Positions 3,231-27,022 of a stretch of 44,804 nucleotides of DNA are shown here, piece after piece (positions within the stretch are counted from its first letter, which is position 1; each line of letters starts with the position of its first letter). Origin of the DNA: an uncultured Clostridia bacterium (lineage in GTDB: Bacteria > Bacillota > Clostridia > Lachnospirales > Lachnospiraceae); assembly GCA_945992055.1 (NCBI GenBank), contig CAMFVG010000065.1, forward strand, positions 1-44,804, in the 5' to 3' direction. The notes below the pieces were generated by a model, which saw only the letters and a program-made list of their open reading frames with translations, had not been told where the DNA came from and did no database searches. Both the position numbers and the translations under genes were made by a program.

Positions 3231-4451
3231 TTCTTGCCTTCTTAAAATATCATATTGATCAAGTTTCATGCCCAAATCAACGTATAACACTTGTTTCGGA
3301 TGTGGCGCACTTTCCTGCTCCATTCCATCCTCCGTCAAAATTCGTTTCACAGTTACTTCTACGTTTTCACCATTTGGTTTCATAACCTCTATGGTCTCAC
3401 CTACAGAGAACTTATTTCTCTGTTCGATGCGATAGGTACCATCTTTTTCTTTCCCTACAATTCCCAAATAAGTGTACTCTTTTACATACGTATTGTTATC
3501 GTAGATTTGGCTTTCCTCATTTGGTTTTCCAAAGAAGAACCCTGTCGTAAATTGTCTGTATGTGCAGTTAGAAATCTGGTCCAAATACCAAGGCATATTC
3601 TCTTGGTAGAGTTTCGGGTCTTTCTTATAGTCATCAATTGCCTTGCGGTATGTTCTTGCAACAGTTGCAACATAGAGTGCGGTCTTCATACGCCCTTCTA
3701 TCTTCAGACTATCAACGCCCGATTCAATCAGCTCCGGGATATGCTCGATCATGCACAAATCTTTCGAATTGAAAATATAGGTTCCCCTTTCATTTTCAAA
3801 AACCGGCATCACCTCGCCCGGTCTTGTCTCTTCCACGATGGAATACTTCCAGCGACACGGATGGGTGCATGCTCCTTGATTCGCATCTCTTCCTACCATG
3901 TAATTACTAAGTAGGCAACGTCCGGAATAAGAAATGCACATGGCTCCATGCACGAAAGTTTCAATTTCCATATCCTCCGGAATATTAGCACGAATCTCTT
4001 TGATTTCTTCCAAAGATAGTTCCCTGGCAGTAACCACGCGGGTTGCCCCTTGTTTGTACCAAAAATTAAAAGTTCCATAATTGGTATTATTGGCTTGGGT
4101 ACTAATATGGCGTTCAATCTCCGGACAAATCTCTCCTGCAATCTCAAAGATAGCCGGATCAGCTATAATCAAACCATCCGGCTTTATTTCTTTCAGTTCT
4201 TTGAAATATTCTTTCACGCCATCCAAATCATAATTATGTGCCAGAATATTCGCTGTCACATACACTTTCACATCATGTTCATGGGCAAACGCAATTCCTT
4301 CCCTCATTTCATCTAAAGAAAAGTTTTTCGCCTTGGCACGAAGCCCAAAAGCTTCCCCACCAATGTACACTGCATCCGCCCCAAAAATAACTGCTGTTTT
4401 TAACACTTCCAAACTACTAGCAGGAATCAACAGTTCTGGATGTCTTGCCAT
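3228..4451 (-). CDS. Peptidase U32 family protein (TrhP/YrrO-like)
   Basis: ELLIPASSLEVLKTAVIFGADAVYIGGEAFGLRA...FVHGAMCISYSGRCLLSNYMVGRDANQGACTHPCRWKY, U32 signature. Confidence 0.93.
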   Translation of the reverse strand: MARHPELLIPASSLEVLKTAVIFGADAVYIGGEAFGLRAKAKNFSLDEMREGIAFAHEHDVKVYVTANILAHNYDLDGVKEYFKELKEIKPDGLIIADPAIFEIAGEICPEIERHISTQANNTNYGTFNFWYKQGATRVVTARELSLEEIKEIRANIPEDMEIETFVHGAMCISYSGRCLLSNYMVGRDANQGACTHPCRWKYSIVEETRPGEVMPVFENERGTYIFNSKDLCMIEHIPELIESGVDSLKIEGRMKTALYVATVARTYRKAIDDYKKDPKLYQENMPWYLDQISNCTYRQFTTGFFFGKPNEESQIYDNNTYVKEYTYLGIVGKEKDGTYRIEQRNKFSVGETIEVMKPNGENVEVTVKRILTEDGMEQESAPHPKQVLYVDLGMKLDQYDILRRQE

Positions 4452-4454
4452 GTC

Positions 4455-5105
4455 TTAATCCTCTCTCACTTTCGTACTTAATGCGACTCCATCTCCTAAT
4501 GGAATAATCGATGTTTCCAACAAATCATGGTGTTTCAATTCATATAGATATTCTCTCATACGGCTGTGAATCGTACGATTTCTTCTTTCCACAGCAAAAC
4601 GTGACTCAATAATATCTCCATCCTGAAGCACATTATCTGAAACCAGCACGCCATCTTTTGCAAGCAGGCGAATCACTTCCGGCATATAATAAATATACTG
4701 CCCCTTTGCTGCATCCATAAAAATAAAGTCAAAACTTTCATCAAGATTTTTCAAAATTTCAAGTGCATCCCCCTCAAGCAAGGTAATGCAATCTTCTTTC
4801 CCGGCACGCTTGAAATTCTCACGCGCAATCGGGATTCTCTTTTCATACTTTTCAATGGTCGTAATCTTACAATCTGCCGTCGTATATTCGCTCATTAAAA
4901 TGGCTGAAAATCCAATGGCTGTCCCTACTTCCAAAATGCGCTTCGGCTTCTTGATCGCTAAAAGTACCTTTAGAAAACTCTGCATTTCTTTCCGTATAAT
5001 CGGAACAAATGTCTCCAACGCCTCTTTTTCAATTGTTTCAAGTATCTCACTGTTTTCCGACTCCAAGGAACGGATAAACGTTACCATTCGTTCGTCTACA
5101 ATCAT
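4455..5105 (-). CDS. O-methyltransferase, TrmR/YrrM-like
   Basis: RILEVGTAIGFSAILMSEY...FDFIFMDAAKGQY...VLVSDNVLQDG; start at MIVDERMVTF immediately after the RNase J stop. Confidence 0.88.
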   Translation of the reverse strand: MIVDERMVTFIRSLESENSEILETIEKEALETFVPIIRKEMQSFLKVLLAIKKPKRILEVGTAIGFSAILMSEYTTADCKITTIEKYEKRIPIARENFKRAGKEDCITLLEGDALEILKNLDESFDFIFMDAAKGQYIYYMPEVIRLLAKDGVLVSDNVLQDGDIIESRFAVERRNRTIHSRMREYLYELKHHDLLETSIIPLGDGVALSTKVRED

Positions 5106-5107
5106 TT

Positions 5108-6775
5108 CTACACATCCATAATAATCGGAAGAATCATTGGTTTTCTCTTGGTCTTCTTCCAAATAAAATCATTCATTGTATCGCGAATCACCAATTTAAT
5201 GCGATTCCAATCCACATAGCGATTGGACATGAGACAATTTTCAATAGCCTCGTAAAGTACCTGCCGCGCCTCTTCCATTAAATCTTCTGATTCTCTGACA
5301 TACACAAAACCTCTGGACACAATATCCGGTCCTGCAAGCAATTGATTCGTTCCCTTTTCTAATGTAAGAACCACAATCATAATACCATCTTCCGCCAAAT
5401 GTTGTCTGTCGCGAAGCACGATATTTCCTACATCTCCAACGCCCAGACCATCTACCAGAATTGCTCCCGTCTGCACTTTGTCCACAATCTTCGCTTCGTT
5501 TGCATCAATTGCCAACACATCCCCGGACTGCATGATAAAAATATTCTCTTTCTCAACACCAAGCGCTTCCGCAATGGCTGCATTCGCTTTCAAATGGCGA
5601 TATTCACCATGTACCGGAATTGCATACTTTGGCTTCAGCAAAGAATAAATCAGTTTCAATTCTTCCTGGCATGCATGTCCCGACACGTGCGCATCACGGA
5701 CGATGACATTTGCACCTTTTTGCGACAATTCATTTACCACACGGGAAACTGCCTTCTCATTTCCTGGAATCGGAGACGAACTGAAAATAACCGTGTCGCC
5801 CGGCTTAATGGTCACTTTCTTATGAATATCTGCTGCCATACGGGAAAGGGCTGCCATAGATTCCCCTTGACTTCCCGTAGTAATAATCACTGTTTTCTCA
5901 TCCGGATAATTCTTCAATTCGTCAATCTCTATTAACGTATTCTTTGGAATATCCAGATATCCCAACTCCAATGCTGTGGTAATAATATTGACCATACTTC
6001 GACCTTCTACCACAACCTTCTTTCCATATTTGCAGGCAGAACGAATAATCTGCTGTACACGGTCCACATTGGATGCAAACGTTGCAATAATAATTCTGCT
6101 GTTGCAATGCTCCGCAAACAGATGGTCAAAGGTAACCCCTACCGTTCTCTCTGACATCGTAAATCCGGCCTTCTCTGCATTCGTACTATCTGACATCATT
6201 GCAAGAACGCCTTTCTTTCCAATTTCCGCAAATCTCTGTAAATCAATGGCATCTCCGAATACCGGCGTATAATCCACCTTAAAGTCACCCGTATGCACAA
6301 CAATTCCAACCGGAGAATAAATGGCTAATGCCGCCGCATCCTGAATACTATGATTCGTTTTTATAAATTCAATACGCAATTGTCCCAGATTAATGGACTG
6401 CCCATAGCTTACCACTTTTCTTCTGGTACTGCGAAGCATATTGTGCTCTTGCAACTTGTTTTCAATAATACCGATAGTCAACTTTGTTGCATAAATCGGC
6501 ACATTAATATCTTTGAGCACGTAGGACAATGCGCCAATGTGGTCTTCATGTCCATGGGTAATTACAAATCCTTTTACTTTTTCAATATTATCTTTCAAAT
6601 AGGTCACATCCGGAATTACCAAATCGATTCCAAGCATATCATCTTCCGGAAATGCCAATCCACAATCCACAACAACAATACTGTCTTCATATTCGAAGGC
6701 AGTAATATTCATACCAATCTGCTCCAAACCGCCGATTGGAATAATCTTTAATTTCGAATTACTTTGTTTCTTCAC
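5108..6775 (-). CDS. rnj: Ribonuclease J
   Basis: ITHGHEDHIGALSYVL, HTGDFKVD, HVSGHACQEELKLIYSLLKPKYAIPVHGEYRHL; beta-CASP/MBL RNase J. Confidence 0.95.
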   Translation of the reverse strand: MKKQSNSKLKIIPIGGLEQIGMNITAFEYEDSIVVVDCGLAFPEDDMLGIDLVIPDVTYLKDNIEKVKGFVITHGHEDHIGALSYVLKDINVPIYATKLTIGIIENKLQEHNMLRSTRRKVVSYGQSINLGQLRIEFIKTNHSIQDAAALAIYSPVGIVVHTGDFKVDYTPVFGDAIDLQRFAEIGKKGVLAMMSDSTNAEKAGFTMSERTVGVTFDHLFAEHCNSRIIIATFASNVDRVQQIIRSACKYGKKVVVEGRSMVNIITTALELGYLDIPKNTLIEIDELKNYPDEKTVIITTGSQGESMAALSRMAADIHKKVTIKPGDTVIFSSSPIPGNEKAVSRVVNELSQKGANVIVRDAHVSGHACQEELKLIYSLLKPKYAIPVHGEYRHLKANAAIAEALGVEKENIFIMQSGDVLAIDANEAKIVDKVQTGAILVDGLGVGDVGNIVLRDRQHLAEDGIMIVVLTLEKGTNQLLAGPDIVSRGFVYVRESEDLMEEARQVLYEAIENCLMSNRYVDWNRIKLVIRDTMNDFIWKKTKRKPMILPIIMDV

Positions 6776-6813
6776 GCTACACCTCCATGTCTTATTCTGT
6801 CTTTCGTAATTCT

Positions 6814-7074
6814 CTACATTTCAATATCAACATCCTCTAATAATTCTTCAAACACTTTTAAGACACTCGAAAGTTCAATGTCATCCTCTACAATCTCATA
6901 CAAACTTTCAGTGTCTTCTGCCGCACTCGTATCTTTTAAAATCAGGCATTCCGCCTCATCTTCCTCTGAATCTGTTACCAAAATGTAATTCTGTCCGCTC
7001 ACTCTTGTCTGTTCTAAAACAAAAAACTCCACTTCTTCCTTTGTGTCTTCAAATGTAAATTTGATTTTCTCCAT
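6814..7074 (-). CDS. DUF1292 family protein
   Basis: 86 aa acidic protein MEKIKFTFEDTKEEVEFFVLEQTRVSGQNYILVTD; context with ruvX/ireB. Confidence 0.8.
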   Translation of the reverse strand: MEKIKFTFEDTKEEVEFFVLEQTRVSGQNYILVTDSEEDEAECLILKDTSAAEDTESLYEIVEDDIELSSVLKVFEELLEDVDIEM

Positions 7075-7075
7075 A

Positions 7076-7504
7076 CTATCCCCTCACACTCATCGAATCT
7101 AAATACCCCTGTAAAATAAAAACTGCCGCAATCTTATCCACATACTTTTTGCGGTCCTCTCTCCGAACTTTGCTCTCCATCAGTGTTCGTTCCGCCTCTA
7201 CTGTAGTGAGTCGCTCATCCCACATAACCACAGGAAGATTGGTTCTTCTCTCCAACATTGCCATAAACTCCAGCGACTTTTCCGCACGCTCGCCCACAGT
7301 ATTGTTCATGTTCTTTGGAAATCCAAGTACAATCGTTTCCACTTCGTACTCTTTTGCCAATTCTTCTATGCGCGCAAGCGTACGGCGCAACTTGTTCTCG
7401 TCTTTGCGCTCAATGGTTTCGATTCCTTGGGCAGTGATTCCCAAAGGGTCACTAATAGCCACCCCTACTGTCTTTGAACCATAGTCCAATCCCATAACTC
7501 TCAT
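7076..7504 (-). CDS. ruvX: Holliday junction resolvase-like RuvX (YqgF)
   Basis: [27 protein letters not shown]...[13 protein letters not shown]. Confidence 0.96.
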
Positions 7505-7510
7505 ATTATT

Positions 7511-7774
7511 TTATTCCCATGAATGGTGTTCAATATACTTCTTCAGCATTTCTTCCACCAATTCATCTCGTTCTAATTTCATAATTAAACTTCTTGCGCC
7601 GTTATAACTTGTAATATAAGTAGGGTCCCCACACATAATGTAACCTACCATCTGACTTACCGGGTCATAACCTTTTTCCTTCAAAGCTTCATATACAATC
7701 TCAATGATATCCTTCGCTTGGATTTGTGGTCCATTTTCTACTTGAAAAAATTGGGTGTTGCTTAAATTCTTCAT
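7511..7774 (-). CDS. IreB family regulatory phosphoprotein (UPF0297)
   Basis: 87 aa, EALKEKGYDPVSQMVGYIMCGDPTYITSYNGARSLI. Confidence 0.95.
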   Translation of the reverse strand: MKNLSNTQFFQVENGPQIQAKDIIEIVYEALKEKGYDPVSQMVGYIMCGDPTYITSYNGARSLIMKLERDELVEEMLKKYIEHHSWE

Positions 7775-7830
7775 CTGATCACGTCCTTTATCTTACTCTG
7801 TTTTCATTCTAATATAAAAAATTATGAAAT

Positions 7831-9105
7831 TCAATGTATAATTTGTCCTGTTTCACCAACTTGAACCTTTACTAATTGATTCTGCAACGATTCTTCTGTT
7901 TGTACCGCAACTTTCACATATTCTTTGGTATGCCCCACCTGATAGCATTTCCCATCCTTTTGGATGCTCTCCTCCATCAGAACCTCCACTTCCGTTCCAA
8001 CAAAGGTACTCTCATATTCTGCTTTCCTTGCATCATGAATCCTTAAAAGTTCATTGCTCCGAAGGGTTTTAATTGGTTCCGGTACTTGGTTTTCCATGAC
8101 GGCTGCTTTCGTTCCCTTACGCTTGGAATATTTGAAAATATGTGTTTCATAAAATCCCACACGTTCCACAAACGTCTTGGATGTTTCAAATTCCTCTTCT
8201 GTTTCTCCCGGAAACCCTACAATGATGTCTGTAGTAAGTGCCGGGTTTTGAAAATACTTTCTCAAAAGCTGACATTTTTCATAATACTCTTCCGTGGTAT
8301 ATCTGCGATTCATTCTGCGCAGCGTCTCATCGCATCCACTCTGAAGAGAAAGATGAAAATGAGGACATATTTTCGATAGTCCTGCCAATGTGCCGGCAAA
8401 TTCCTCGCTCACAATCCTAGGCTCTAAAGACCCCAAACGAATTCTCTGGATACCGTCCACTTCATGGACCGCCAAGATTAAAGATAGCAAGCTTTCGTTC
8501 TCCAAATCCACACCATAAGAACTCAAATGAATGCCGGTTAGAACCACTTCCTTATATCCATTTTTCGCCAGTTCCTTCACTTCCCGAACCACATCTTCTT
8601 TCGCCCGGCTTCGCACACGTCCTCTCGCATAAGGGATAATACAATAGGTGCAAAACTGATTGCATCCATCCTGCACTTTGATATATGCTCTCGTGTGCTC
8701 TGCAGTCTTACTAATCTGCATTTCTTCGTATTCTTTTGTATGGTTGATGTCAATCACTGTTTTCTGAATCTGTTCCTCTAAAATGCGAATCAAATCTTTT
8801 TTTCGATTGTTCCCGATGATCACATCAATACTTTCATCTATGGTTTCTGTGCCTTCCTGTGCCTGCACATAACACCCTGTAGCAACTACAATCGCATTGG
8901 GATTCATCTTTTTCGCACGATGTAGCATCTGTCTGGATTTGCGATCTGCCATATTTGTAACGGTGCAGGTATTGACAATATAAATGTCCGCACCTTCTCG
9001 AAATGGTACGATTTCATACCCATGATTCTCCAGCATCTCCTGCATGGCATCTGTTTCATATGCATTTACTTTACACCCAAGATTGTGTAATGCTACCTTC
9101 TTCAT
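7831..9105 (-). CDS. mtaB: tRNA (N(6)-L-threonylcarbamoyladenosine(37)-C(2))-methylthiotransferase MtaB
   Basis: MKKVALHNLGCKVNAYETDAM...KVQDGCNQFCTYCIIPYARGRVRSR radical SAM methylthiotransferase; start moved from 9189 to 9105 (MKKVAL). Confidence 0.94.
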   Translation of the reverse strand: MKKVALHNLGCKVNAYETDAMQEMLENHGYEIVPFREGADIYIVNTCTVTNMADRKSRQMLHRAKKMNPNAIVVATGCYVQAQEGTETIDESIDVIIGNNRKKDLIRILEEQIQKTVIDINHTKEYEEMQISKTAEHTRAYIKVQDGCNQFCTYCIIPYARGRVRSRAKEDVVREVKELAKNGYKEVVLTGIHLSSYGVDLENESLLSLILAVHEVDGIQRIRLGSLEPRIVSEEFAGTLAGLSKICPHFHLSLQSGCDETLRRMNRRYTTEEYYEKCQLLRKYFQNPALTTDIIVGFPGETEEEFETSKTFVERVGFYETHIFKYSKRKGTKAAVMENQVPEPIKTLRSNELLRIHDARKAEYESTFVGTEVEVLMEESIQKDGKCYQVGHTKEYVKVAVQTEESLQNQLVKVQVGETGQIIH

Positions 9106-9130
9106 GTCATGTATCCTTTCATTTTGTTTC

Positions 9131-9159
9131 TTGACTTTTCGTCCTATTGAGCATAAGAT
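9131..9159 (+). promoter_or_regulatory. Sigma-A type promoter for the HPr-like gene
   Basis: TTGACT (9131-9136), 17-nt spacer, TAAGAT (9154-9159). Confidence 0.6.
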
Positions 9160-9187
9160 ATGTTTATAAAAAACAAGGGGGTCAACC

Positions 9188-9421
9188 ATGAAAACTGTAA
9201 CTATCTCATTAAACTCAATTGAAAAGGTAAAAACTTTTGTAAACTTAATTAATAGATTTGATTATGATTTTGATCTAGTATCCGGAAGATACGTGATTGA
9301 TGCAAAATCAATTATGGGAATCTTCAGTCTCGATTTATCAAAACCAATTAATCTTACTATTCATGCAGACGGCGAAAGTGCCGACTCTATCGTAAAAGAG
9401 CTTGCTCCGTATTTAGTATAA
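9188..9421 (+). CDS. HPr-family protein lacking the phosphorylatable histidine (Crh-like)
   Basis: 77 aa; AKSIMGIFSL motif matches the HPr Ser-46 region; the GLHARPA His-15 region is replaced by LNSIEKVK. Confidence 0.82.
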   Translation: MKTVTISLNSIEKVKTFVNLINRFDYDFDLVSGRYVIDAKSIMGIFSLDLSKPINLTIHADGESADSIVKELAPYLV

Positions 9422-9427
9422 TATGAA

Positions 9428-9450
9428 ACCCCACTTGCAACAAGTGGGGT
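9428..9450. terminator. Hairpin terminator between the HPr-like gene and thiI
   Basis: ACCCCACTTG-caa-CAAGTGGGGT followed by cTTTaTTaTTT on +. Confidence 0.85.
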
Positions 9451-9455
9451 CTTTA

Positions 9456-10637
9456 TTATTTCACCAAAATTGTTTCTACAGAACGAATTGCTTCTTCCAT
9501 CAACTCATCTATCTTCTCTTTCAGATTTTCTTCTGAACGTCTGATAATATTGATATTTGGTTTCGTCACCGGATGTTTTGCAACAAAGATTGTACAGCAA
9601 TCTTCAAACGGCAAAATTGACGTTTCAAACGTATCAATCTTTTCTGCAATCTCCACGATTTCCTGTTTGTCAAATCCAATCAACGGACGATATACCGGCA
9701 TGGTACATACATCATTTGTAGCTGCTAAACTCTGCATGGTCTGGCTTGCCACTTGTCCGATACTCTCTCCCGTAATCAATCCCAAACATCCACTTGTCTT
9801 TGCGAAATGTTCCGCGATCTTCATCATATAACGTCTCATAATAATGGTTAATTCTTCATGTGGACATTTTTCATAGATATATAACTGGATGTCCGTAAAA
9901 TTGACTACATTCAGCTTAATTGGTCCAGAATATTTGGACACTAACTGTGCCAAATCCACCACTTTCTGTTTGGCACGCTCACTGGTATACGGCGGTGCAT
10001 GAAAATAGGTTGCTTCTAACTGTACCCCACGTTTTGCAATCATATATCCTGCAACCGGACTGTCAATTCCACCGGATAACAAGAGCATGGCTTTTCCATT
10101 CGTTCCTACCGGCATTCCACCCGGTCCCGGAATAATTTCTGAGTAAATGTAAATCAAATCTCGCACTTCAATGTTTAGCAATATCTCCGGCTTATGCACA
10201 TCCACACGAATCTCCGGAAAAGCATCCAAAATGGCTTCTCCCAAATCGCAATTGATTTCCATGGAGTTTTTCGGATAACTCTTCTTTCCCCGTCTTGCCT
10301 CCACTTTAAAGGTCGTATTTTTATCCGGATACATCTTATCCATATAATCTACAACTACCTCTTTTAGTTTGTCAAAACCTTCATCCTCCACATAGACAAC
10401 CGGACAGATTCCCACAATACCGAACACTCTCTTAAGTGCTTCTACGGTCTCGTCATAGTCATAATATCCTTCACATTCTACATAGATTCTTGCTTGAGAT
10501 TTGTGTACACGAAAGGTTCCCTCTACATCCTTTAATGCAAATCGAATCTGATTCATAAGTGCATCTTCAAACAGGTAGCGGTTTTTCCCTTTCAACCCTA
10601 TCTCTCCGTATTTTATCAAAAAAGCTTGAAACTTCAT
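9456..10637 (-). CDS. thiI: tRNA 4-thiouridine synthase ThiI
   Basis: KYGEIGLKGKNR, THUMP region, LLSGGIDSPVAGYMIAKRG PP-loop, YFHAPPYTSERAKQKV. Confidence 0.96.
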   Translation of the reverse strand: MKFQAFLIKYGEIGLKGKNRYLFEDALMNQIRFALKDVEGTFRVHKSQARIYVECEGYYDYDETVEALKRVFGIVGICPVVYVEDEGFDKLKEVVVDYMDKMYPDKNTTFKVEARRGKKSYPKNSMEINCDLGEAILDAFPEIRVDVHKPEILLNIEVRDLIYIYSEIIPGPGGMPVGTNGKAMLLLSGGIDSPVAGYMIAKRGVQLEATYFHAPPYTSERAKQKVVDLAQLVSKYSGPIKLNVVNFTDIQLYIYEKCPHEELTIIMRRYMMKIAEHFAKTSGCLGLITGESIGQVASQTMQSLAATNDVCTMPVYRPLIGFDKQEIVEIAEKIDTFETSILPFEDCCTIFVAKHPVTKPNINIIRRSEENLKEKIDELMEEAIRSVETILVK

Positions 10638-10652
10638 TGGTATACTTTCCTC

Positions 10653-11810
10653 CTAATGTCTTGTGTATTTTCGAAGCATCGGTACACAATTATATAATGT
10701 TTGCAAGGTATAGTCAATTTCCTCTTTCGTTGTAAATTCCGAAAGGCTAAAACGCAGTGTCGCATCCAGATACTCCGGCCCCACTCCGATTCCTCGCAGT
10801 ACACCGCTAATTGCCGGATGATTGGATGCACAGGCAGAGCCGGAAGATACATAAATCCCTTTATCTTCCAACGCATGAAGAAGAACCTCTCCTCTGATTC
10901 CTGCAAATCCCACGCTCACAATGTGTGGTGCGCTGGCATCGTCTTCACACCCATGAATCTTCGTCTTTTCAATCTTTCGAATTCCATCCATAAAATAATT
11001 CTTTAGCGCACGCATGTGTGTGATTTTTTCATCAAAATTCGTATAAATCTCTCGTGCTGCCAATCCAATGCCCGCTATTCCCGGAACGTTTTCCGTGCCG
11101 GAACGGATATTTTTTTGTTGTTCCCCACCGAATACAATCGGTTTGATTTTTACCTTCTCATTCACATACAAAACACCGCTACCCTTTGGTCCGTGAATCT
11201 TATGACCACTGATAGACAGAAGGTCTACCCCAATACGTTTTGGATAGATACGATATTTCCCAAATCCCTGTACTGCGTCCACATGAAATAGAATGTTCCT
11301 ATTGTAATTCTTTACAATCCGCACGGCTTCTTCAATCGGTTGCACAGAACCAATTTCGTTGTTTACATACATAATAGAAACAAGAATCGTCTCCTCACAC
11401 AAAGCACGCTTCAATGCATCCAATTGAATGCAACCATAAGAGTCAACCGGAAGATAGGTCACTCTAAATCCTTCTTCCTGCTCCAAATATTGCATCGTGT
11501 TTAAGATAGCCGGATGTTCAATTGAGGAAGTAATCAAATGCTTCCCTACGCGCTTATTTGCTCTTGCACATCCGATTAACGCCAGATTGTCGCTCTCCGT
11601 TCCTCCGGAAGTAAAGAAAATTTCCTTTTCTTGAACCTTCAACAATTTCGCAAAATCTTCTTTTGCTTTTTTTACATATTTTTCAGCATCCATTCCCTTT
11701 TTGTGCATGGACGACGGATTCCCATAATCTTCACACATCACTCTACCAACAAGTTCACGCACACTGTCATAGCACCTGGTAGTTGCCGAATTGTCCAAAT
11801 ATACTTCCAT
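10653..11810 (-). CDS. Cysteine desulfurase (NifS/IscS-like), probable ThiI partner
   Basis: MEVYLDNSATTRC...FTSGGTESDNLAL...ISGHKIHGPKGSGVLYV...SSGSACAS. Confidence 0.95.
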   Translation of the reverse strand: MEVYLDNSATTRCYDSVRELVGRVMCEDYGNPSSMHKKGMDAEKYVKKAKEDFAKLLKVQEKEIFFTSGGTESDNLALIGCARANKRVGKHLITSSIEHPAILNTMQYLEQEEGFRVTYLPVDSYGCIQLDALKRALCEETILVSIMYVNNEIGSVQPIEEAVRIVKNYNRNILFHVDAVQGFGKYRIYPKRIGVDLLSISGHKIHGPKGSGVLYVNEKVKIKPIVFGGEQQKNIRSGTENVPGIAGIGLAAREIYTNFDEKITHMRALKNYFMDGIRKIEKTKIHGCEDDASAPHIVSVGFAGIRGEVLLHALEDKGIYVSSGSACASNHPAISGVLRGIGVGPEYLDATLRFSLSEFTTKEEIDYTLQTLYNCVPMLRKYTRH

Positions 11811-13561: not shown

Positions 13562-14443
13562 TCATTTTGGCATTTTCACTTTCAGTTCCGGCATCATGGC
13601 ACTGACTTTTGCCTCGGCCGGTATGGATTCTGTCACAAACGTATTACCCGCAACCGTTGCATTTCTCCCTACAACCGTATTCCCTCCTAAAATGGTGGCA
13701 TTTGCATAAATAATTACATTGTCCTCGATGGTAGGATGACGCTTGATACCGGAAAGAGCCTGACCCTTTCTTGTAGAAAGTGCGCCAATCGTCACACCCT
13801 GATAGATTCTTACTCCATTGCCGATAATCGCCGTCTCACCAATAACAATACCCGTTCCATGGTCGATAAAAAAGTATTCGCCGATTGTCGCTCCCGGGTT
13901 AATATCGATTCCGGTCTGTCCATGGGCATACTCACTCATAATACGCGGTAAAATCGGAACTTCCAATTCATACAGTATATGTGCATACCGATACACAAAA
14001 ATAGCATACATACCCGGATAAGCCAAAATAACCTCCGTCTTGCTACTTGCAGCCGGGTCTCCTGCCATAGTCGCTTCCACATCTTTCATGAGAAGTTCCT
14101 GCACCTTTGGAATCTGATTTAAAAAAGATATGGTAAGTGCTTCTGCTTTCTCTTCTAATTTTTCACTAGCATCTGTTTCTGAGAGAATCTTGGTAATTTG
14201 CTTTTTGATTCTATAATGCAAAGACACTAATATTCCTTCTGCAAAAGCTTCTCTCGACAAGAATCTTTCGCTGCCAAAATATCCCGGAAATGTGATTTTA
14301 TGAAGTTCCTCCAATATACGGTAAACCTCCTCACGGTCCGGCAGATTCGTTTTTAATGATGCATCTATAATATCCTGCGTCTCATAATTCGCGGTCAGTT
14401 TTTTTGTAATATCTAATATCGTATCTTTTGTCCTATTTTCCAT
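13562..14443 (-). CDS. cysE: Serine O-acetyltransferase (EpsC-type)
   Basis: DINPGATIGEYFFIDHGTGIVIGETAIIGNGVRIYQGVTIGALST left-handed beta-helix repeats; next to cysK. Confidence 0.92.
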   Translation of the reverse strand: MENRTKDTILDITKKLTANYETQDIIDASLKTNLPDREEVYRILEELHKITFPGYFGSERFLSREAFAEGILVSLHYRIKKQITKILSETDASEKLEEKAEALTISFLNQIPKVQELLMKDVEATMAGDPAASSKTEVILAYPGMYAIFVYRYAHILYELEVPILPRIMSEYAHGQTGIDINPGATIGEYFFIDHGTGIVIGETAIIGNGVRIYQGVTIGALSTRKGQALSGIKRHPTIEDNVIIYANATILGGNTVVGRNATVAGNTFVTESIPAEAKVSAMMPELKVKMPK

Positions 14444-15463: not shown

Positions 15464-16633
15464 TTATACAATCTTTTCATACAAAAGCACACCAAGTAGC
15501 TCTTCTGTACTGAAAAGAAAAGATTTCTGACAAATTTTCTCTAACCTTATCAGATTTAAATCTGAATGCTCCAGCTCTCTGGAAACACGATGGGCAATAT
15601 CCACAAACCCATCAAAGCCCAACTGTTGTCCTTTTTCTATCCATTCTGCAAAGGCCAGTTCCCGAATGAGCAATGTGGCCGTAACTGCTATTTTTATTTT
15701 GCCCAAAGCATTACCATCATAAACCGCTCCACAAAAATAAGTAAAAACAAAATAGACCATCAACTGTTCAAGCCAAATAGACCATTCCTCGCCCATGCTT
15801 CCTAAAAACTGTTGCAGCCTCTCCTGATATACCCTTTGCCCTTCTCCGTAAAGGGTACGCTCGGCACCTTTTATATACTCCGGCCAATCTGCTTTTAACA
15901 CTTCTAATTTTCGAAATACACGGAACATTTTCCGCATATTGGAGCAATACTCGATTTCACTCATTTGATTTCTCTTAACCTTTTGCTCAAAGTCAAAGAA
16001 CATTTCGGCTCCCCCAAACTTTTCGAGCATTTCATCAATGCGGAAAACTTCTCCTTCTTCTATTGCTTCCTGCAGCTGATCTGCAAAATCCAGAGCCACT
16101 CCAATGCGTGTCATAATATCAATCTCACGACTTTGAAGCATACCAATAATATAGCCCCTAACATCCATCAATTTAGTAAACAGCAGATAATCAAAATCTT
16201 CATATTCCTCATCTTCCACATCATCTTCAAAACGAAGAAAACGCACCGGTTCCTTGCAACCGAGAATGATTTTGGCGGCTTCAATGCAGGATAGAGAGAG
16301 GGAGCCTTCCCGCAATCCTTCAAACTCTTCCATATGCCGCGGATAATCCCGACACGTATTGCAAAGCATCTGCTCGCCCCCTTGAATATGAAGGTCACAC
16401 AAATCATCCGAATTCAAAAAAGCGCACCGCTTATCTTGCTGTAAAAAGCATCCCTTTTTCCAATCAATAGAATTCTTTAATCGGTCACCAAACACTCCTT
16501 TTGCGTTTCTGTACCTTTCCAAAGATTCCTCATCAATCATAATGGCCCAACCTGCGCAGCAAGTATCCTCACACTCTGCGGCTACACACTGAAACTGCTC
16601 AAAATAGTGCGGTATTATATATTCCATACACAT
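15464..16633 (-). CDS. Flagellin lysine-N-methylase (FliB-like) family protein
   Basis: Cys-rich N-terminus CVAAECEDTCCAGWAIMIDEESLERYRN...CAFLNSDDLCDLHIQGGEQMLCNTCRDYPR; no flagellar genes in the window. Confidence 0.75.
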   Translation of the reverse strand: MCMEYIIPHYFEQFQCVAAECEDTCCAGWAIMIDEESLERYRNAKGVFGDRLKNSIDWKKGCFLQQDKRCAFLNSDDLCDLHIQGGEQMLCNTCRDYPRHMEEFEGLREGSLSLSCIEAAKIILGCKEPVRFLRFEDDVEDEEYEDFDYLLFTKLMDVRGYIIGMLQSREIDIMTRIGVALDFADQLQEAIEEGEVFRIDEMLEKFGGAEMFFDFEQKVKRNQMSEIEYCSNMRKMFRVFRKLEVLKADWPEYIKGAERTLYGEGQRVYQERLQQFLGSMGEEWSIWLEQLMVYFVFTYFCGAVYDGNALGKIKIAVTATLLIRELAFAEWIEKGQQLGFDGFVDIAHRVSRELEHSDLNLIRLEKICQKSFLFSTEELLGVLLYEKIV

Positions 16634-18834: not shown

Positions 18835-21264
18835 CTAATACATAAGCACTGCTTCTTGTCCATGCAATGTTTTATATGCCATCCAAGAAATATCTCCATT
18901 TGCATTAAATGTAATTTTCACAGTTCCGTGTGGATTTGCATCTGTTGCACTTGTACTATCCTCATATCCAACTGTTAAATGTAAGTTAGAACGATTTGCA
19001 TAATCTGCGTTGATTTCACCAATATTCCATGGATATACAACAGAACCATCATCGCCTACATATACATTCTTATATTGTCCTAAGTAATAATCTTCTGTGC
19101 TAGTTGATGTATGTTTATATGTTGAGAATTTTTTAACAAATGGGAACAACATAACATCAAACTTATTGCTTTCATTATTGGTGTTATTCAACAAGAAATC
19201 TGCCCAACCTGTATTGGCTTTACCTGCATTTACATATCCATCTTGAGCACTCGTCGGATAATAAGATGAACCATTATTAAAGTTGTACTGATTCATCGCA
19301 TTCTTACCATGATGATATGCTGCAAATACATTAATATTAGCCAATGTATTATTGTTTTCACCATATGCATCTATGATATACTGCATTGTAATCTTTGTAG
19401 AGTCACCACCGATAAGAACTCTCTTACCTGTTTCATTCAATGTGAATACAAAGTTTACAGAAGATGTATTGAATGGGTCTGGAGTATGTGTCTCTACTGT
19501 CTTCTCTCCACCTGTCCATGTATCAACAGCAATTTGTTCCGGAGTATTTACAATATCCATTGTAAGACCATTGAAGTAATATCTTTGACCCATGTGTACT
19601 TCGTAGAAATCCGGAGCAGAGTTATCTGTCGGAGATTTAGTTAACAATTTTGCACCCTGAATTGCACCATTAATGTCACCAATTGTTCTGGTTTCATAGA
19701 TTGTTGCTCCATAAGCACTTGGCTCATTTGCATATAATGCATTCAAGTAAACATTCTCTCTAAGAGAAGCATCTTTCGCAAAATCCATCAAAGCACCTGC
19801 ATGATCATTATGGAAGTGAGAAATCGTCCAAGCATCAATGTAGATTGGATTTCCTTCCCCTACTTGTGATTGCAAATAAGCTTTCAAAATCGCTCCACTT
19901 CCGTTATCTGTATTACCATCATTGATGATAAAGTGTCCATTTGGCAATTGGAATACAAAACAGTTACCTGTAATATTTACAGCTTCTTTGTCTTCTACCA
20001 TACTAAGCGCTACTGCATTCGTTCCTGTATCTGTGCCAATTGGATTCTTCGCATCATCATCCACCAATGTCTTTGCCATTGAATCTACATCTGAGTTAAG
20101 AGATACATAAATCTTACCATCATTTGTAACGAATGTAACATTTACAACCCATTCACCCAAATTATTAGCAACTGTTTTGTAGTATGTAGCACTATAAACA
20201 CCATCCGCCTCCATAGGTGTTCCTACATTGCTTGCTTGCGGTTTAAATCCATTAGCTTCGTTATTAAGGAATTGTAAGTAGCTGTCATATGTTGTTTTTG
20301 TACCAGTTACTGTCACAACATAATCACCGGCACCTTCTGCCACTGCATTAGAAAGGCTTCCACTAATTGTTCCCAATCCTAATTCATTTGTGAGTGTTGC
20401 GATAGTTGCATCGCTAACGATAGTTCTTACATCCACTACATCTTTTAATGCTGTTGGGATCGGAACATCATTTGTTCTCATGGTCCATGCACTTGTGAAG
20501 TCTAACTTTTGTGCATCAAGTAAAGTATCATTTTTAATATCTCTTGCAACTTGTGGCACATAACCAATCAAACGATCACCATTAGATGTTTGAATAACTT
20601 GACCTGTTAAAGTACCGTTTCCACCGCCCCAAGAAAAAGTTGTGCCCCATCCTCTGTTGGCAAATACATTATTTAAAGTATAAGTTGATGTGTCTGTTTC
20701 ATTTACTCCACTGTAGAAATATCCAACGACAGAACCAATCCATTTTGTTCCATTCGGAATATCAAAAGTCCCTGCTGAAACCACAGACTCTAAATTAGTC
20801 GCTGTAACAGTGTTATAAGTCTGCCCAATAATTCCTCCGATACCATAATTATCACTAGTTGGACGGTTTCCTTTGATATGTCCAGTGTACAAAACATTTG
20901 TTAAGTTTAGGGTTCCGTTTTCTTGGTATCCTACGATACCACCGATATAACCTACTTCTTTTGTCAACTCAATGCTACCATCAAACCAACAATTATTAAT
21001 TGCAACTGTTTCACCTTCTACTGAAGCCGGACGCATAATGCCAACGATACCACTTGTATAGTGACATGGACTTACCATTGTAGCATTACTATAAACATTG
21101 GTGATATCACCAGCAGCATCTCCAACAATTGATCCAGTAAAGTGGCTCCATGTACCAGATGCATATGATTGTTCTACATAACTATCAAGAAGTCTAAAGT
21201 TACTAATAGAACTTCCTGCTGCTGTCTTTCCAAAGAAACCAACAGCTACGCTACTTGATTTCAC
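18835..21264 (-). pseudogene. 3' portion of the interrupted giant gene: end of GLUG module 5 plus C-terminal metallo-beta-lactamase-fold domain
   Basis: 809 aa open frame from GTG 21264, in frame with the upstream ORF across one TGA; MBL motifs AWTISHFHNDHAGAL, RVLIGGDSTK, FAAYHHGKN; no signal peptide of its own. Confidence 0.8.
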
Positions 21265-21324
21265 ATAAATACCTGAAATGGAATGTCCTTGTCCATCGAA
21301 GTTACCATTAAAGGTAACCGGTGT

Positions 21325-24300
21325 TCATGTATAAGTAGGCACATCTGTGCCTGCTTTCCATTCTGAAACATTAGGTGTATTTAATGTAATATTCGCGCCT
21401 AATTTAATTGTTTTTTCGTCGAAAGTTTCACCTTTCTTAGCCAATGATAAGAATCCTAATAAATCACCTTTATTTTGGATTACATATGCACCATCCACAG
21501 GTTCTGAGTACCAAGCAATGCTTGGTGCAGCCTCAACTGCACCTTCGTCCTGTCTTGCAATCCACCATTCTGCAAATGTTGCAAGGATTGGTGTACCACG
21601 ATCTACATCATTGTATCCTGTGTCTTGTACCCAAGCTGTTGAACCTGAGAATAAGGTTGCTAAGTCTGCTTGGTAAAGATCAACTCTTGATTTAACTGCA
21701 TCTTGGTTATAGGTTACATAAGACTCACTACCACCTTGAAGAAGCACTGTGCCTGTTGTGTAAGTATTTGTGATTATTGTTTTTCCTGATGTGGCTGCAT
21801 CGCCAATAAACATACATGCTGTTGCAGAAACGTCAGACTCTGCACTTCCAACCATCAAACAGTTTGCCCAAGTGCTGTCTTGTTCTTTATTCCCATATGC
21901 ATGCCAACCTATAAATCCACCAACACGAGTGTAACCAGATTGACTTCCGGTATTCAAACAGTTTTGTGCTACAAATATTGGTCTTGTTCCTGTCGTTTGA
22001 GCAGTCATACCAACAAAACCACTGACACCACCTTGGGTACCCTTACTATTTGTAGTATCTGCAGTTTGAGTAATTGTTCCATCAAACCAACAATTACTGA
22101 TAAGCATTTCTGCTCCCGATCCAGATGCACGACCGATAAAGCCACCTACATGGTTACCTTCAGAACACATAATAGCGTTTGTATATACGTTTTCAATCTT
22201 CGCAAAAGTACCATCACCAATCAAACCGAATTGATCACCTGTACTCTTCATATAGCTATCAATCAATTTGAAGTTTTGAATTGTTGCTGTTGCTGCAGTT
22301 GTTCCAAAAACACCTGATGCACTTGCTGTTGCGTTTAAGTAAAGTCCACTTATTGTGTTTCCTTGACCATCAAATGTACCTGCAAACGGTTTTGCTGCTG
22401 TACCAATTGGTGTCCAATTTTTGCCGACAGCAGAACCTTCTTGCCATTTTGCAAGGATCGTTTCATCTACTTCGTTCAATACGATATTTGCACCGAGTTT
22501 TACAGTTTGACCTGCAAAGTTCTTTGTCTTTGCTAGTTGTGCAAAACTATAAAATTGATCCGCAGTTGTCAATGTAATCTCTGTAGCATTCTCATCGTAC
22601 CAAGAAAAATCTACTGTCAACTCATCATGTTTAACATTTTCAATCCACCAATCTGCAAAATATGCAAGGATTGGTGTACCACGGTCTGTATCGTTCCATC
22701 CGTTTTGATTATCATTTACCCACGCATTTGATTCTGGGAACAATGTTGCCACATCAGTTCCAATAAGTTCGTCACGTGTCTTTACAGTTCCTGTTGCAGG
22801 ATTGTTTCCGTTTCCTACAATTTGAAGCACTCCATACGAAGTGTAAATCTTAGAATTAGATGCACTTGTTGAATGATCACCATAGAACGAGCCGTACCTA
22901 TTTGCATACGATGTATGATTTGCAATAACAGTTGCTACTGACAAACAATTTTTAATTTCAGCTACAGCGTAAGTATCTTTCGCACCAAAGAATCCTCCAA
23001 TATTATATCCGCCTGTTACTGTTCCGGTACTTAAGCAGTCATAGAATCCTACTGAAGCCGCTCCTGACATACCAGCCACAAATCCACCTGCTTTACGTGC
23101 TGTTTTTGCTTGTTCTATATATCCGTCAAACCAACAATTTCTAAAGGTCGTATAAACTTGCAAATAATCAGCTGCGTATTTATCCATTGTTCCCAAGAAT
23201 CCTGCTACGTCACTTCGGTCAGTAGCAGTACTGATCATAACTGCATTTGTATAGATATTTTCCATACAGATAACTGCACCTTTACCTACAATACCCAAAC
23301 TTGGAGCACTATTCTTCATATAACTATCAACCAATTTAAAGTTTCTAAATTCACTTGGACTAGCTGTTCGTCCAAACAAACCTGCACCTTCTACATTTGT
23401 ATCTAAGTAAAGTCCACTGATTGTATATCCTTGACCATCAAATGTTCCTGCAAACGGTGTAGTAGATGTACCAATTGGTGTCCAAGTATTACTTGGAGTT
23501 ACTGTTCCAGCCACCCACTTCTTAACAATTGTGCTATCTGCTTTATTCAAAGCAATATTTGCACCAAGTTTGATTGTCTTGCCAGAGAATGTATTTGTTT
23601 TAGCAAGTTCTGCTAAACCATTAAGGTCTGCCGCATCATACAATGTGAATTCTGTATCATTATCGTTGTACCATGAAATATCTACTGTCAACTCATCATG
23701 TGGAATATTTGCAATCCACCACTCTGCAAATGTTGCAAGGATTGGTGTACCACGGTCTGTATTGTTCCATCCAGTAGCACCATCGCTTACCCATGCATTT
23801 TCTGTTTCGCCAACTAATACTGGGAATAATTCTGTTTCATCTGCATAAATCAATTCATTTCTGGTCTTGAGATATCCTTCCGGTACTGTTCCACTACCAA
23901 CTTTACCTACCAAGTTATCTCCCACACCATACGAATTATTAACCGTCAAACTTACTACATTTGTATTGACCGCTGCAATAAGTGCACCTTCAACACTCCA
24001 TGTATCCGTTCCTGTTGTCTGTACATCACCTACACTTAAGCAGTTATTAAACAACCATTTATCAGTTTGCCATGCCGGTGATACATACCAACCATTATTG
24101 ATATATCCAAGGATTCCTCCTGCTCGTTTTACACAAGAGATGTTTCCTGTATTCAAACAGTTGTTAAACGTGATCGTAGATCTTGCTGTTGTATTTCCTA
24201 CAATACCTGCAGCCATCTCGCCACCTGATGTAATAGAACCATCAAACCAACAGTTACTGAATGTTGCAACTACAGATTCACCTGCCGGAACAAATTCACC

Positions 24301-26892
24301 GAGCATACCTGCTACTGCATGACCTGTACCAGTTTCCATAATTGCATTTGTATAAATATTCTCAATTTTTTCTACTGTACCGCGTCCTACAATACCCAAT
24401 CGTCCGGTCGTCGTCTTCATGTAACTATCAACAAGTTTAAAGTTCTTAATAACCGTTGTTCCGGTTGTCTCACCAAATAATCCTGAATTCGCACTCGTAG
24501 CATTGAGGTAAAGTCCACTAATCGTATATCCTTGACCATCAAATGTACCCGCAAACTTACTGTCTGAAGTACCAATTGGTGTCCACATATTATCAGCAAT
24601 TGCTGTTCCTTTTACCCACTTCTTAACAATTGTGCTATCTGCTTTATTCAAAGCAATATTTGCACCAAGTTTGATTGTCTTGCCAGAGAATGTATTTGTT
24701 TTAGCAAGTTCTGCTAAACCATTCAATTGTGCTGCAGTTGTGATAACATATTCTGTTGCGTCTGCATCATACCAACTTGTATCTAAACCTGCTTCATATT
24801 GTTTTTCATTCCACCAGCTAGCAAATGCGCTTAAGATTGGTGTCTGCGCATCTTCTACATTATTTACCCATGCACCATTGTGTCCTGGGAATAATGTATT
24901 TACATTAGCTGTTGCTAATTGCTCTGTAGTTTTTTGACAATCTGCTGCTGTGTAAGCCGTAAAGCCATTTGCATTCCAAGCTTTTGTTGCTGAAGTATAA
25001 CAATTGCTCATTTCCAACCAACCTAATGTAGGATGTTGTGCTGTTGCAAAAAGTCCACCCTTAGCATTGGTAGCAACATTGAATTCACCTGTTGTCAAAC
25101 AATTAGTAAGTTCCATCCACATTGCATTGACATTTCTAGAAAAGAGTCCGCCTACATATGCAGATGTACTTGCATTATTAATTGTCCCTGTGTAAAGACA
25201 ATTAATCATATCAAGACGATATGTATTGTTCAAAGCACCCATGATACCGCCAATGTTAGCAGCACCTGTAGATGAAGAATTAATTTCACCATCAAACCAA
25301 CAGTTTTTGTACAACAAGTGTGGTTCTGTGATAGCCGCTTTATTGTCGCCATCTTTTATAGTTTTGTCCTTCGGGCTCAGACGTCCAACCAATCCACCTA
25401 CGTATGCAGTTGCATTGCTAGACACAAGCACTGCATCACTATAAACGTTCTCCACGCGTTTCAAGCCATATCCATAGGAAACAATTGCACCTACATTTGC
25501 ATAACTAGTTTCAAAATAACTGTTTGTCAAACGTACATTTGCAATTTCCGCATCCTCTCCATTGTTAATGCCTGCATAACCAAAGAGTCCTACAAAAGAA
25601 CTTCCGCCACTTATATACAAACCACTAATGGTATTATTATCACCATCAAAGATACCTCTGAAGTCTGCATTCCATTCATTACCAATTGGTGTCCATGCCA
25701 CAGGCGTTGTATCTGATTTCCATGTTGCAACTCCATCGCTTGCTTCTGAAGCAGGAATTGCAAGACCTTTGTTAACTTCTACACTTCTAACAAGATGAAT
25801 TTCATTTTGATAGAAAAGATCTTTTTTGCCATTTACAATACTAGCCAAACCATAAAGGTCTGAAACAGATGCGATTGCAAATCTTGTTGCAGTTGGGTCT
25901 ACATCATACCAAGATGTATCTGCTGTTCCAGCAACATCTGTGTAGTAGTTTCTATAGATAGTTTTTACTGTACCTTCCGCACCAGTAATCACAAACTTGG
26001 TTGCTGATTTAAGTCCCAAAGCAGTATCTTCGCCACCTAAAGTGATACGTACATTTGAATGTCCGTTTTCAGAAGAAAGGACTTCTACTTGTGTAGCGTC
26101 AGCGCCTGTTCCCTCTGCATTTGGTCCATATGTAGCTGTATATGCTCCGCCTACAGTCATAGCCTGATCTACAGTTACATTGATGATGTTTTCACCAGAG
26201 TCATTAATAGAAACACATCTTTGTTGTCCGAATACTTCTGTTCCGTCTAATGTTTTCCAGAATGCTCTTACCTTATATGTAACACCTTCATTTCCTACCT
26301 CTACAGGAAGTTTTGCTGTCATGAAGTACTCTGAATCTTCTCCTACCATCTTCGGGCTGAAATCATATGTGTCAATTTTTCCACCTGCCACACCCGTTGT
26401 AGAATCAATTCTTGAAAATACTTTGTTTGAAGTATTTCTTACCTTTGTTCCATCCTCTAACTCGAGTTCGAAACCAATCTTACTATAATCCAAACTTTCT
26501 ACAGATGAAACGAAACGAATAACATACTTATCTACATATTTTTCATTTCCGTCTTCATCTTGTACGTCAGATTTTTGTACTACACCGTTTGTAATCTGCA
26601 CTTTCACATCCAAAGTGTCTGCTTTTACAAATTTTGCATGTGTAGCTGTTTCTTTTGTTGCTTTGTTTGCCTGCGTACACACTTCAGATTTGAAATATCC
26701 CGCAAACAAATAGTCTTCCAAATCCGGCACGCCGTCTTTGTCAGAATCATTCCAATTAGCTTCTGCTACTGTTATATAGCTACTTTCGCTTGAAGCTGTT
26801 GCTGCATCTACTTCACTTGCGTTTGGATTCAGGTACATAAATCCTGTTACGATCATTGCAAGTGCAAGTAGAGTTGCTAATACTTTTTTCAT
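21325..26892 (-). CDS. Large secreted GLUG-motif surface protein, 5' portion (ends at in-frame TGA)
   Basis: Signal peptide MKKVLATLLALAMIVTGFMYLNPNASEVDAA from ATG 26892 with AGGAAGGAG; Ca-binding-like DSDKDGVPDLEDYLFAGY; GLUG modules WTPIGT..FAGTFDGQGYTISGLYLN...GLFG. Confidence 0.88.
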   Translation of the reverse strand: MKKVLATLLALAMIVTGFMYLNPNASEVDAATASSESSYITVAEANWNDSDKDGVPDLEDYLFAGYFKSEVCTQANKATKETATHAKFVKADTLDVKVQITNGVVQKSDVQDEDGNEKYVDKYVIRFVSSVESLDYSKIGFELELEDGTKVRNTSNKVFSRIDSTTGVAGGKIDTYDFSPKMVGEDSEYFMTAKLPVEVGNEGVTYKVRAFWKTLDGTEVFGQQRCVSINDSGENIINVTVDQAMTVGGAYTATYGPNAEGTGADATQVEVLSSENGHSNVRITLGGEDTALGLKSATKFVITGAEGTVKTIYRNYYTDVAGTADTSWYDVDPTATRFAIASVSDLYGLASIVNGKKDLFYQNEIHLVRSVEVNKGLAIPASEASDGVATWKSDTTPVAWTPIGNEWNADFRGIFDGDNNTISGLYISGGSSFVGLFGYAGINNGEDAEIANVRLTNSYFETSYANVGAIVSYGYGLKRVENVYSDAVLVSSNATAYVGGLVGRLSPKDKTIKDGDNKAAITEPHLLYKNCWFDGEINSSSTGAANIGGIMGALNNTYRLDMINCLYTGTINNASTSAYVGGLFSRNVNAMWMELTNCLTTGEFNVATNAKGGLFATAQHPTLGWLEMSNCYTSATKAWNANGFTAYTAADCQKTTEQLATANVNTLFPGHNGAWVNNVEDAQTPILSAFASWWNEKQYEAGLDTSWYDADATEYVITTAAQLNGLAELAKTNTFSGKTIKLGANIALNKADSTIVKKWVKGTAIADNMWTPIGTSDSKFAGTFDGQGYTISGLYLNATSANSGLFGETTGTTVIKNFKLVDSYMKTTTGRLGIVGRGTVEKIENIYTNAIMETGTGHAVAGMLGEFVPAGESVVATFSNCWFDGSITSGGEMAAGIVGNTTARSTITFNNCLNTGNISCVKRAGGILGYINNGWYVSPAWQTDKWLFNNCLSVGDVQTTGTDTWSVEGALIAAVNTNVVSLTVNNSYGVGDNLVGKVGSGTVPEGYLKTRNELIYADETELFPVLVGETENAWVSDGATGWNNTDRGTPILATFAEWWIANIPHDELTVDISWYNDNDTEFTLYDAADLNGLAELAKTNTFSGKTIKLGANIALNKADSTIVKKWVAGTVTPSNTWTPIGTSTTPFAGTFDGQGYTISGLYLDTNVEGAGLFGRTASPSEFRNFKLVDSYMKNSAPSLGIVGKGAVICMENIYTNAVMISTATDRSDVAGFLGTMDKYAADYLQVYTTFRNCWFDGYIEQAKTARKAGGFVAGMSGAASVGFYDCLSTGTVTGGYNIGGFFGAKDTYAVAEIKNCLSVATVIANHTSYANRYGSFYGDHSTSASNSKIYTSYGVLQIVGNGNNPATGTVKTRDELIGTDVATLFPESNAWVNDNQNGWNDTDRGTPILAYFADWWIENVKHDELTVDFSWYDENATEITLTTADQFYSFAQLAKTKNFAGQTVKLGANIVLNEVDETILAKWQEGSAVGKNWTPIGTAAKPFAGTFDGQGNTISGLYLNATASASGVFGTTAATATIQNFKLIDSYMKSTGDQFGLIGDGTFAKIENVYTNAIMCSEGNHVGGFIGRASGSGAEMLISNCWFDGTITQTADTTNSKGTQGGVSGFVGMTAQTTGTRPIFVAQNCLNTGSQSGYTRVGGFIGWHAYGNKEQDSTWANCLMVGSAESDVSATACMFIGDAATSGKTIITNTYTTGTVLLQGGSESYVTYNQDAVKSRVDLYQADLATLFSGSTAWVQDTGYNDVDRGTPILATFAEWWIARQDEGAVEAAPSIAWYSEPVDGAYVIQNKGDLLGFLSLAKKGETFDEKTIKLGANITLNTPNVSEWKAGTDVPTYT
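23513..23622. repeat. 110-bp exact direct repeat, copy A
   Basis: Base-by-base identical to 24614-24723 (acccacttcttaacaattgtgctatctg...tctgctaaaccatt). Confidence 0.95.
24614..24723. repeat. 110-bp exact direct repeat, copy B
   Basis: Identical to 23513-23622; offset 1101 bp = 367 codons. Confidence 0.95.
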
Positions 26893-26917
26893 AACGTTCA
26901 CTCCTTCCTTCCTATCT

Positions 26918-27022
26918 TTACGCCCACGGATCATCGCTATCGCCTTCGCCACCAAGTGACAAGCAAACGATATCCTCTAGGTCCAGTTCAATAACTTCTA
27001 CAATTGGTTTTTCGTACTTCAT
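26918..27022 (-). CDS. Uncharacterised 34-aa peptide upstream of the giant gene (not in the supplied ORF track)
   Basis: ATG at 27022 preceded by AAGGAAGGG; translation MKYEKPIVEVIELDLEDIVCLSLGGEGDSDDPWA, TAA; 25 bp before the giant gene ATG. Confidence 0.7.
   Translation of the reverse strand: MKYEKPIVEVIELDLEDIVCLSLGGEGDSDDPWA

What the first reader, a model, noticed from the sequence alone, without database searches (positions are those of the whole stretch)
21262..21327. Single in-frame TGA splits a ~2,700-codon GLUG/MBL secreted protein exactly at a conserved tryptophan
Reading the minus strand through the gap gives ...WKAGTDVPTYT-TGA-TPVTFNGNFDGQGHSISGIYVKSSSVAV..., with no frame change between the 1876-aa and 809-aa ORFs. 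The equivalent position in the other four modules is Trp: AWTPIG, MWTPIG, TWTPIG, NWTPIG. One TGG-to-TGA change therefore separates the signal peptide and four modules from the rest of module 5 and the MBL domain. The downstream frame remains open for over 2.4 kb with intact MBL motifs, so the event is recent, or is a sequencing error, or the stop is suppressed. A 6-bp hairpin (GTTACC-TTTAAT-GGTAAC) begins about 6 nt after the TGA; its relevance is unknown. TGA is a normal stop in this window (for example the cysE stop at 13562-13564).
Basis: partly seen in the sequence, partly recalled or inferred. Interest (0 to 1): 0.75.

Follow-up and report, generated by a model that had tools for sequence, protein, structure and literature searches.

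The report
Stray stop codon in draft genome
A single stop codon interrupts one very long secreted-protein gene in an incomplete draft genome, and because the same draft also shows a stop codon inside a gene the cell cannot do without (aspartyl-tRNA synthetase), it is most likely a sequence error or a private mutation and not a special decoding signal.

Summary
On the minus strand one in-frame TGA (21325-21327) interrupts a frame otherwise open for 2,706 codons (1,876 before, 829 after). It sits in repeat module 5, in a column that is Trp in all 22 other modules matched in four related proteins. Nothing supports recoding: RF2 is present with its usual TGA frameshift site; the one tRNA-Trp found has anticodon CCA and is of the type seen in congeners; no UCA tRNA, no SelB and no confident tRNA-Sec were found; TGA ends about 9% of coding segments. 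A scan of nearly the whole assembly (1.62 Mb, 114 contigs, 85% complete) found three other in-frame interruptions: TAA inside the only bacterial-type aspS, an essential gene; TAG in a hexapeptide acetyltransferase; TGA plus a 1-nt frameshift in a secreted LamG-phosphoesterase, at a column that is not Trp in relatives. So the assembly holds at least one stop that cannot be real, and the stop types are mixed. Best reading: consensus error or minority allele (0.55); next, a genuine private nonsense mutation (0.35); readthrough 0.07. No orthologue was found and reads are unavailable, so the site itself could not be compared. The protein family (giant repeat proteins paired with metallo-beta-lactamase-fold proteins, here fused) is more interesting than the stop.

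The parts
18835..26955 (-). Whole reading frame of the interrupted secreted repeat/MBL protein (2,706 codons plus stop, one internal TGA); probable start ATG near 26892 before a signal-peptide-like stretch (by eye)
21325..21327 (-). The in-frame TGA, codon 1877, in the Trp column of module 5
21328..26955 (-). Upstream open part: signal-peptide-like N-terminus, four complete repeat modules and the start of module 5
18835..21324 (-). Downstream open part: rest of module 5 and the MBL-fold domain; no start with a Shine-Dalgarno-like site before codon 370 after the TGA
18838..20250 (-). Slice used as the C-terminal MBL-fold region; HxHxDH at 19801-19818, GD aspartate at 19402-19404, HH at 19309-19314
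21295..21318 (-). Hairpin region GTTACC-TTTAAT-GGTAAC (approximate bounds) inside codons for the conserved repeat motif

Best explanation
The gene encodes one giant secreted repeat protein with a C-terminal metallo-beta-lactamase-fold domain. The TGA is most likely a single-base consensus error, or a minority allele caught in the consensus, of an incomplete multi-contig assembly, and has no function. Shown: the TGA is unique in the frame, the frame is otherwise intact, and the same assembly holds a stop in its only bacterial-type aspS, which a living cell cannot have. Inferred: that the window's stop has the same origin. What the protein does is inferred only from its parts: a long surface or secreted repeat stalk carrying a metal-dependent hydrolase domain.
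For: Genome-wide scan finds only four such interruptions, of mixed type TAA/TAG/TGA/TGA. aspS matches profile positions 2-584 at 799 bits with one TAA inside and no other hit passes the family cut-off. The second TGA case lies at a non-Trp column and that gene also carries a 1-nt frameshift. Expected share of TGA among random nonsense changes is 24%, so two of four is unremarkable. The assembly is fragmented and 85% complete. Downstream codon usage is undecayed.
Against: No read or coverage data; the aspS stop shows that false stops exist here, not that this one is false. Error rate implied is low (four interruptions found in 1.62 Mb), so a real mutation remains quite possible. The change falls exactly on a conserved Trp, and only 56 of the gene's 1,059 single-base routes to a stop are at TGG codons.
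Confidence: 0.55

Rival explanations
1. The TGA is a genuine, recent, private nonsense mutation. The cell makes a truncated protein with four modules; the MBL domain is not translated because no start with a plausible ribosome-binding site lies near the stop.
For: The sequence as given; non-essential accessory gene with no orthologue in 98 relatives by DNA and only distant homologues by protein; another secreted accessory gene on C49 carries two lesions, as a decaying gene would; no Shine-Dalgarno-like start until codon 370 after the TGA.
Against: Same assembly has a false-looking stop in aspS, so artefact is at least as likely; no second lesion in 829 downstream codons.
Confidence: 0.35
2. 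The TGA is a leaky stop read as Trp by the ordinary tRNA-Trp, giving mostly truncated repeat protein and a little full-length protein with the MBL domain.
For: Stop sits exactly at an invariant Trp; downstream frame intact; tRNA-Trp has A24, the nucleotide that the G24A change creates in E. coli and that promotes UGA readthrough there (PMC13092985); TGA is the rarest stop here; mild structure after the stop.
Against: A24 and the G:U 27:43 pair are present in every congener in which the tRNA was found, so they are not special; anticodon stem has 5 bp, counting G:U; RF2 present with its TGA autoregulation site; no family of TGA-at-Trp genes in the genome, and the only other internal TGA is not at Trp; the congener's repeat proteins have no internal stop.
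Confidence: 0.07
3. The stop is a functional split into two proteins, recreating the separate repeat-protein and MBL genes seen in relatives.
For: In own contig C91 and congener contigs C17 and C18 the repeat protein and an MBL protein are adjacent separate genes.
Against: The break lies inside module 5, not between the repeats and the MBL domain; the downstream part lacks its own signal peptide and nearby ribosome-binding site, while the separate MBL genes have their own N-terminal hydrophobic or lipoprotein-like stretch.
Confidence: 0.03

Closest known systems
Spurious or private premature stops in draft and metagenome-derived genomes
   Same: Isolated in-frame stop, intact frame after it, mixed stop types elsewhere including an essential gene. 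Truncation of predicted proteins by premature stops is used as an error measure for such assemblies, there for indels (PMC6785717).
   Different: Here a substitution-type lesion, and read support could not be checked.
UGA readthrough or UGA-to-Trp decoding by tRNA-Trp(CCA) variants (PMC13092985)
   Same: TGA at a conserved Trp; tRNA-Trp with A24.
   Different: 5-bp anticodon stem, same tRNA in congeners, TGA is a working stop, no further TGA-at-Trp genes.
Metallo-beta-lactamase fold proteins (Pfam PF00753)
   Same: HxHxDH, GD and HH motifs shared by five related proteins; homologues on L035 and L037 pass the gathering score.
   Different: The window domain scores 21.0 against 22.7 and is fused to a giant secreted repeat protein; relatives keep the two as neighbouring genes.
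GLUG-motif surface proteins (Pfam PF07581, from own knowledge)
   Same: Secreted, repeated G-rich motif 'FDGQGHTISGLY', by eye.
   Different: No Pfam GLUG match up to E = 10.

Membership tests
UGA-to-Trp recoding or altered code | tRNA able to read UGA (UCA anticodon or 4-bp anticodon-stem tRNA-Trp) | tested here: not met
   24 tRNAs found in the assembly, one tRNA-Trp with anticodon CCA and 5-bp stem counting G:U; genome 85% complete, so a missed gene is possible
UGA-to-Trp recoding or altered code | TGA rare or absent as stop and frequent at Trp columns, RF2 lost or altered | tested here: not met
   TGA ends 80 of 898 coding segments, RF2 intact with frameshift site, one TGA-at-Trp case only
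UGA-to-Trp recoding or altered code | Full-length product made | not testable with these tools
   Needs proteomics or a reporter
Selenocysteine insertion | SelB and tRNA-Sec present | tested here: not met
   selB best 119 bits against cut-off 242, located in an ORF whose sequence reads as IF-2; best tRNA-Sec-like hit is tRNA-Ser
Assembly or consensus error | Other impossible lesions in the same assembly | tested here: met
   In-frame TAA in the only bacterial-type aspS
Assembly or consensus error | Reads disagree with the consensus at the site | not testable with these tools
   No reads held
Metallo-beta-lactamase fold | Profile match and metal-binding motifs | tested here: inconclusive
   Lactamase_B E = 3.4e-4 but 21.0 bits against gathering 22.7; HxHxDH, D and HH conserved in five proteins; structure model unusable, pLDDT 33
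GLUG motif (PF07581) | Pfam profile match | tested here: not met
   No hit up to E = 10

The most novel reading that the evidence does not exclude
The TGA is a programmed or tolerated leaky stop decoded as Trp, so that a minor share of a giant surface repeat protein carries a metallo-hydrolase head.
Probability: 0.05. Interest if true: 0.6.

Novelty: not a real feature. Interest (0 to 1): 0.12.

Why it matters
If it were true readthrough it would be an unusual bacterial case of a C-terminal enzyme domain added by leaky termination. As it stands it is a caution: a lone in-frame stop in an incomplete draft assembly should be weighed against stops found in that assembly's essential genes. The pairing of giant repeat proteins with MBL-fold proteins, sometimes fused, may be worth describing for its own sake.

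Tried and rejected
Selenocysteine insertion: rejected, no SelB and no confident tRNA-Sec. Altered code: rejected. A24 in tRNA-Trp as a special suppressor feature: rejected, present in every congener in which the tRNA was found (one search was a faulty first attempt). Shared ATACATGA context of the two internal TGAs: noticed, dropped because the second is not at a Trp column and that gene has a second lesion. Structure prediction of the MBL part was unusable. Literature searches on repeat plus MBL proteins found nothing.

Full report
What is there. The minus-strand frame from 26955 to 18835 is open for 2,706 codons apart from one TGA at 21325-21327. By eye the protein begins with a signal-peptide-like stretch, then has five modules of about 350 residues, each with a 'WTPIG...FAGTFDGQGYTISGLY' core, then a metallo-beta-lactamase-fold (MBL) domain. 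The TGA stands in the column that is Trp in each of 22 other modules matched in four proteins.

Surroundings. The window is the whole of contig C65 of an assembly of 114 contigs and 1.62 Mb, 85.4% complete, 2.6% contaminated. Neighbouring genes are ordinary: threonine synthase, an antiporter, a xylose-isomerase-like TIM barrel, a hexapeptide transferase, PrmA, ThiI, RNase J. No real orthologue was found by DNA in 98 relatives; only short stretches matched. By protein, at E <= 1e-10 among 195 genomes, relatives were found only in the own genome and one congener, at 30-38% identity. In these the repeat protein and an MBL protein are separate adjacent genes: own contig C91 (MBL first; repeat protein runs off the contig) and congener contigs C17 and C18 (repeat proteins of 2,919 and 2,795 aa, without internal stop). 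The window gene is thus a fused version of a recurring pair.

Is it recoding? RF2 is present with the standard frameshift site at a TGA. TGA ends 80 of 898 coding segments, TAA 561, TAG 257. No SelB passes the cut-off, and the best tRNA-Sec-like hit is a tRNA-Ser. The only tRNA-Trp found has anticodon CCA and a 5-bp anticodon stem if G:U is counted. It has A24, the nucleotide created by the G24A change that promotes UGA readthrough in E. coli (PMC13092985), but so does every congener in which the tRNA was found. The structure after the TGA is only slightly better than shuffles and lies in codons of the conserved motif. None of this singles the site out.

Is it an artefact? I fetched the contigs as stretches (1,620,773 of 1,621,342 bases) and scanned all same-frame pairs of coding segments separated by one stop that lack a nearby start with a Shine-Dalgarno-like site. 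Read by eye, most of the list are ordinary gene pairs. Four are interruptions: this one; TAA in aspS on C100; TAG in a hexapeptide acetyltransferase on C15; TGA in a secreted LamG-phosphoesterase on C49. The aspS match covers profile positions 2-584 of 586 at 799 bits with one TAA inside, and no other hit passes the family cut-off; the next hit reads as a lysyl-tRNA synthetase. Aspartyl-tRNA synthetase is essential (established knowledge), so that stop is not real in the living population. The C49 gene also has a 1-nt frameshift, and its TGA aligns to Gly and other non-Trp residues in relatives. The stop types are what random substitutions would give: expected TAA 43%, TAG 33%, TGA 24%.

Weighing. 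Artefact or minority allele 0.55, genuine private nonsense 0.35, readthrough 0.07, functional split 0.03. The one point for readthrough is the position: 56 of the gene's 1,059 single-base routes to a stop are at TGG codons, so hitting a Trp by chance is about 1 in 10 to 1 in 20. That does not outweigh the lack of machinery, the lack of further cases and the aspS control.

Limits. No reads, coverage or sister strains were available, so error and real mutation cannot be separated. The scan uses codon usage, would miss lesions near gene ends, and its list was classified by eye. That the assembly is metagenome-derived is inferred from its fragmentation and the completeness figures, not stated by a tool. 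The MBL domain's substrate is unknown, and the structure model was unusable.

Noticed in passing
G000:C100 14773-16524, TAA at 15706 (L212, L158): The only bacterial-type aspS of the assembly carries an in-frame TAA although the match is otherwise full length; a sign of base errors in the assembly.
   Followed up: yes
G000:C90 (L149) 4279-9410: A penicillin-binding-protein gene just upstream of mraY is split by about 3.3 kb holding a sodium/solute symporter-like gene and a large serine recombinase, with a 7-bp CCTGTAA repeat at both junctions: it looks like a gene-interrupting integrative element in the cell-division cluster.
   Followed up: partly
G000:C49 (L107) 4024-6570, minus strand: A secreted LamG plus phosphoesterase-like protein has an in-frame TGA (6202) and a 1-nt frameshift near 4023; it looks like a decaying gene or an error-rich stretch.
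   Followed up: partly
G000:C15 (L073), TAG at 917: A hexapeptide acetyltransferase is interrupted by an in-frame TAG.
   Followed up: partly
L034 3-4769; L036 4456-15060; L037 1876-12108; window 18835-26955: Giant FDGQGHTISG repeat proteins stand next to MBL-fold proteins in three loci and are fused in the window; no Pfam family covers the repeats well.
   Followed up: partly
G000:C11 (L035) 9279-11000: A fusion of an MBL-fold domain with a HAD-like domain, related to the window's MBL domain.
   Followed up: no
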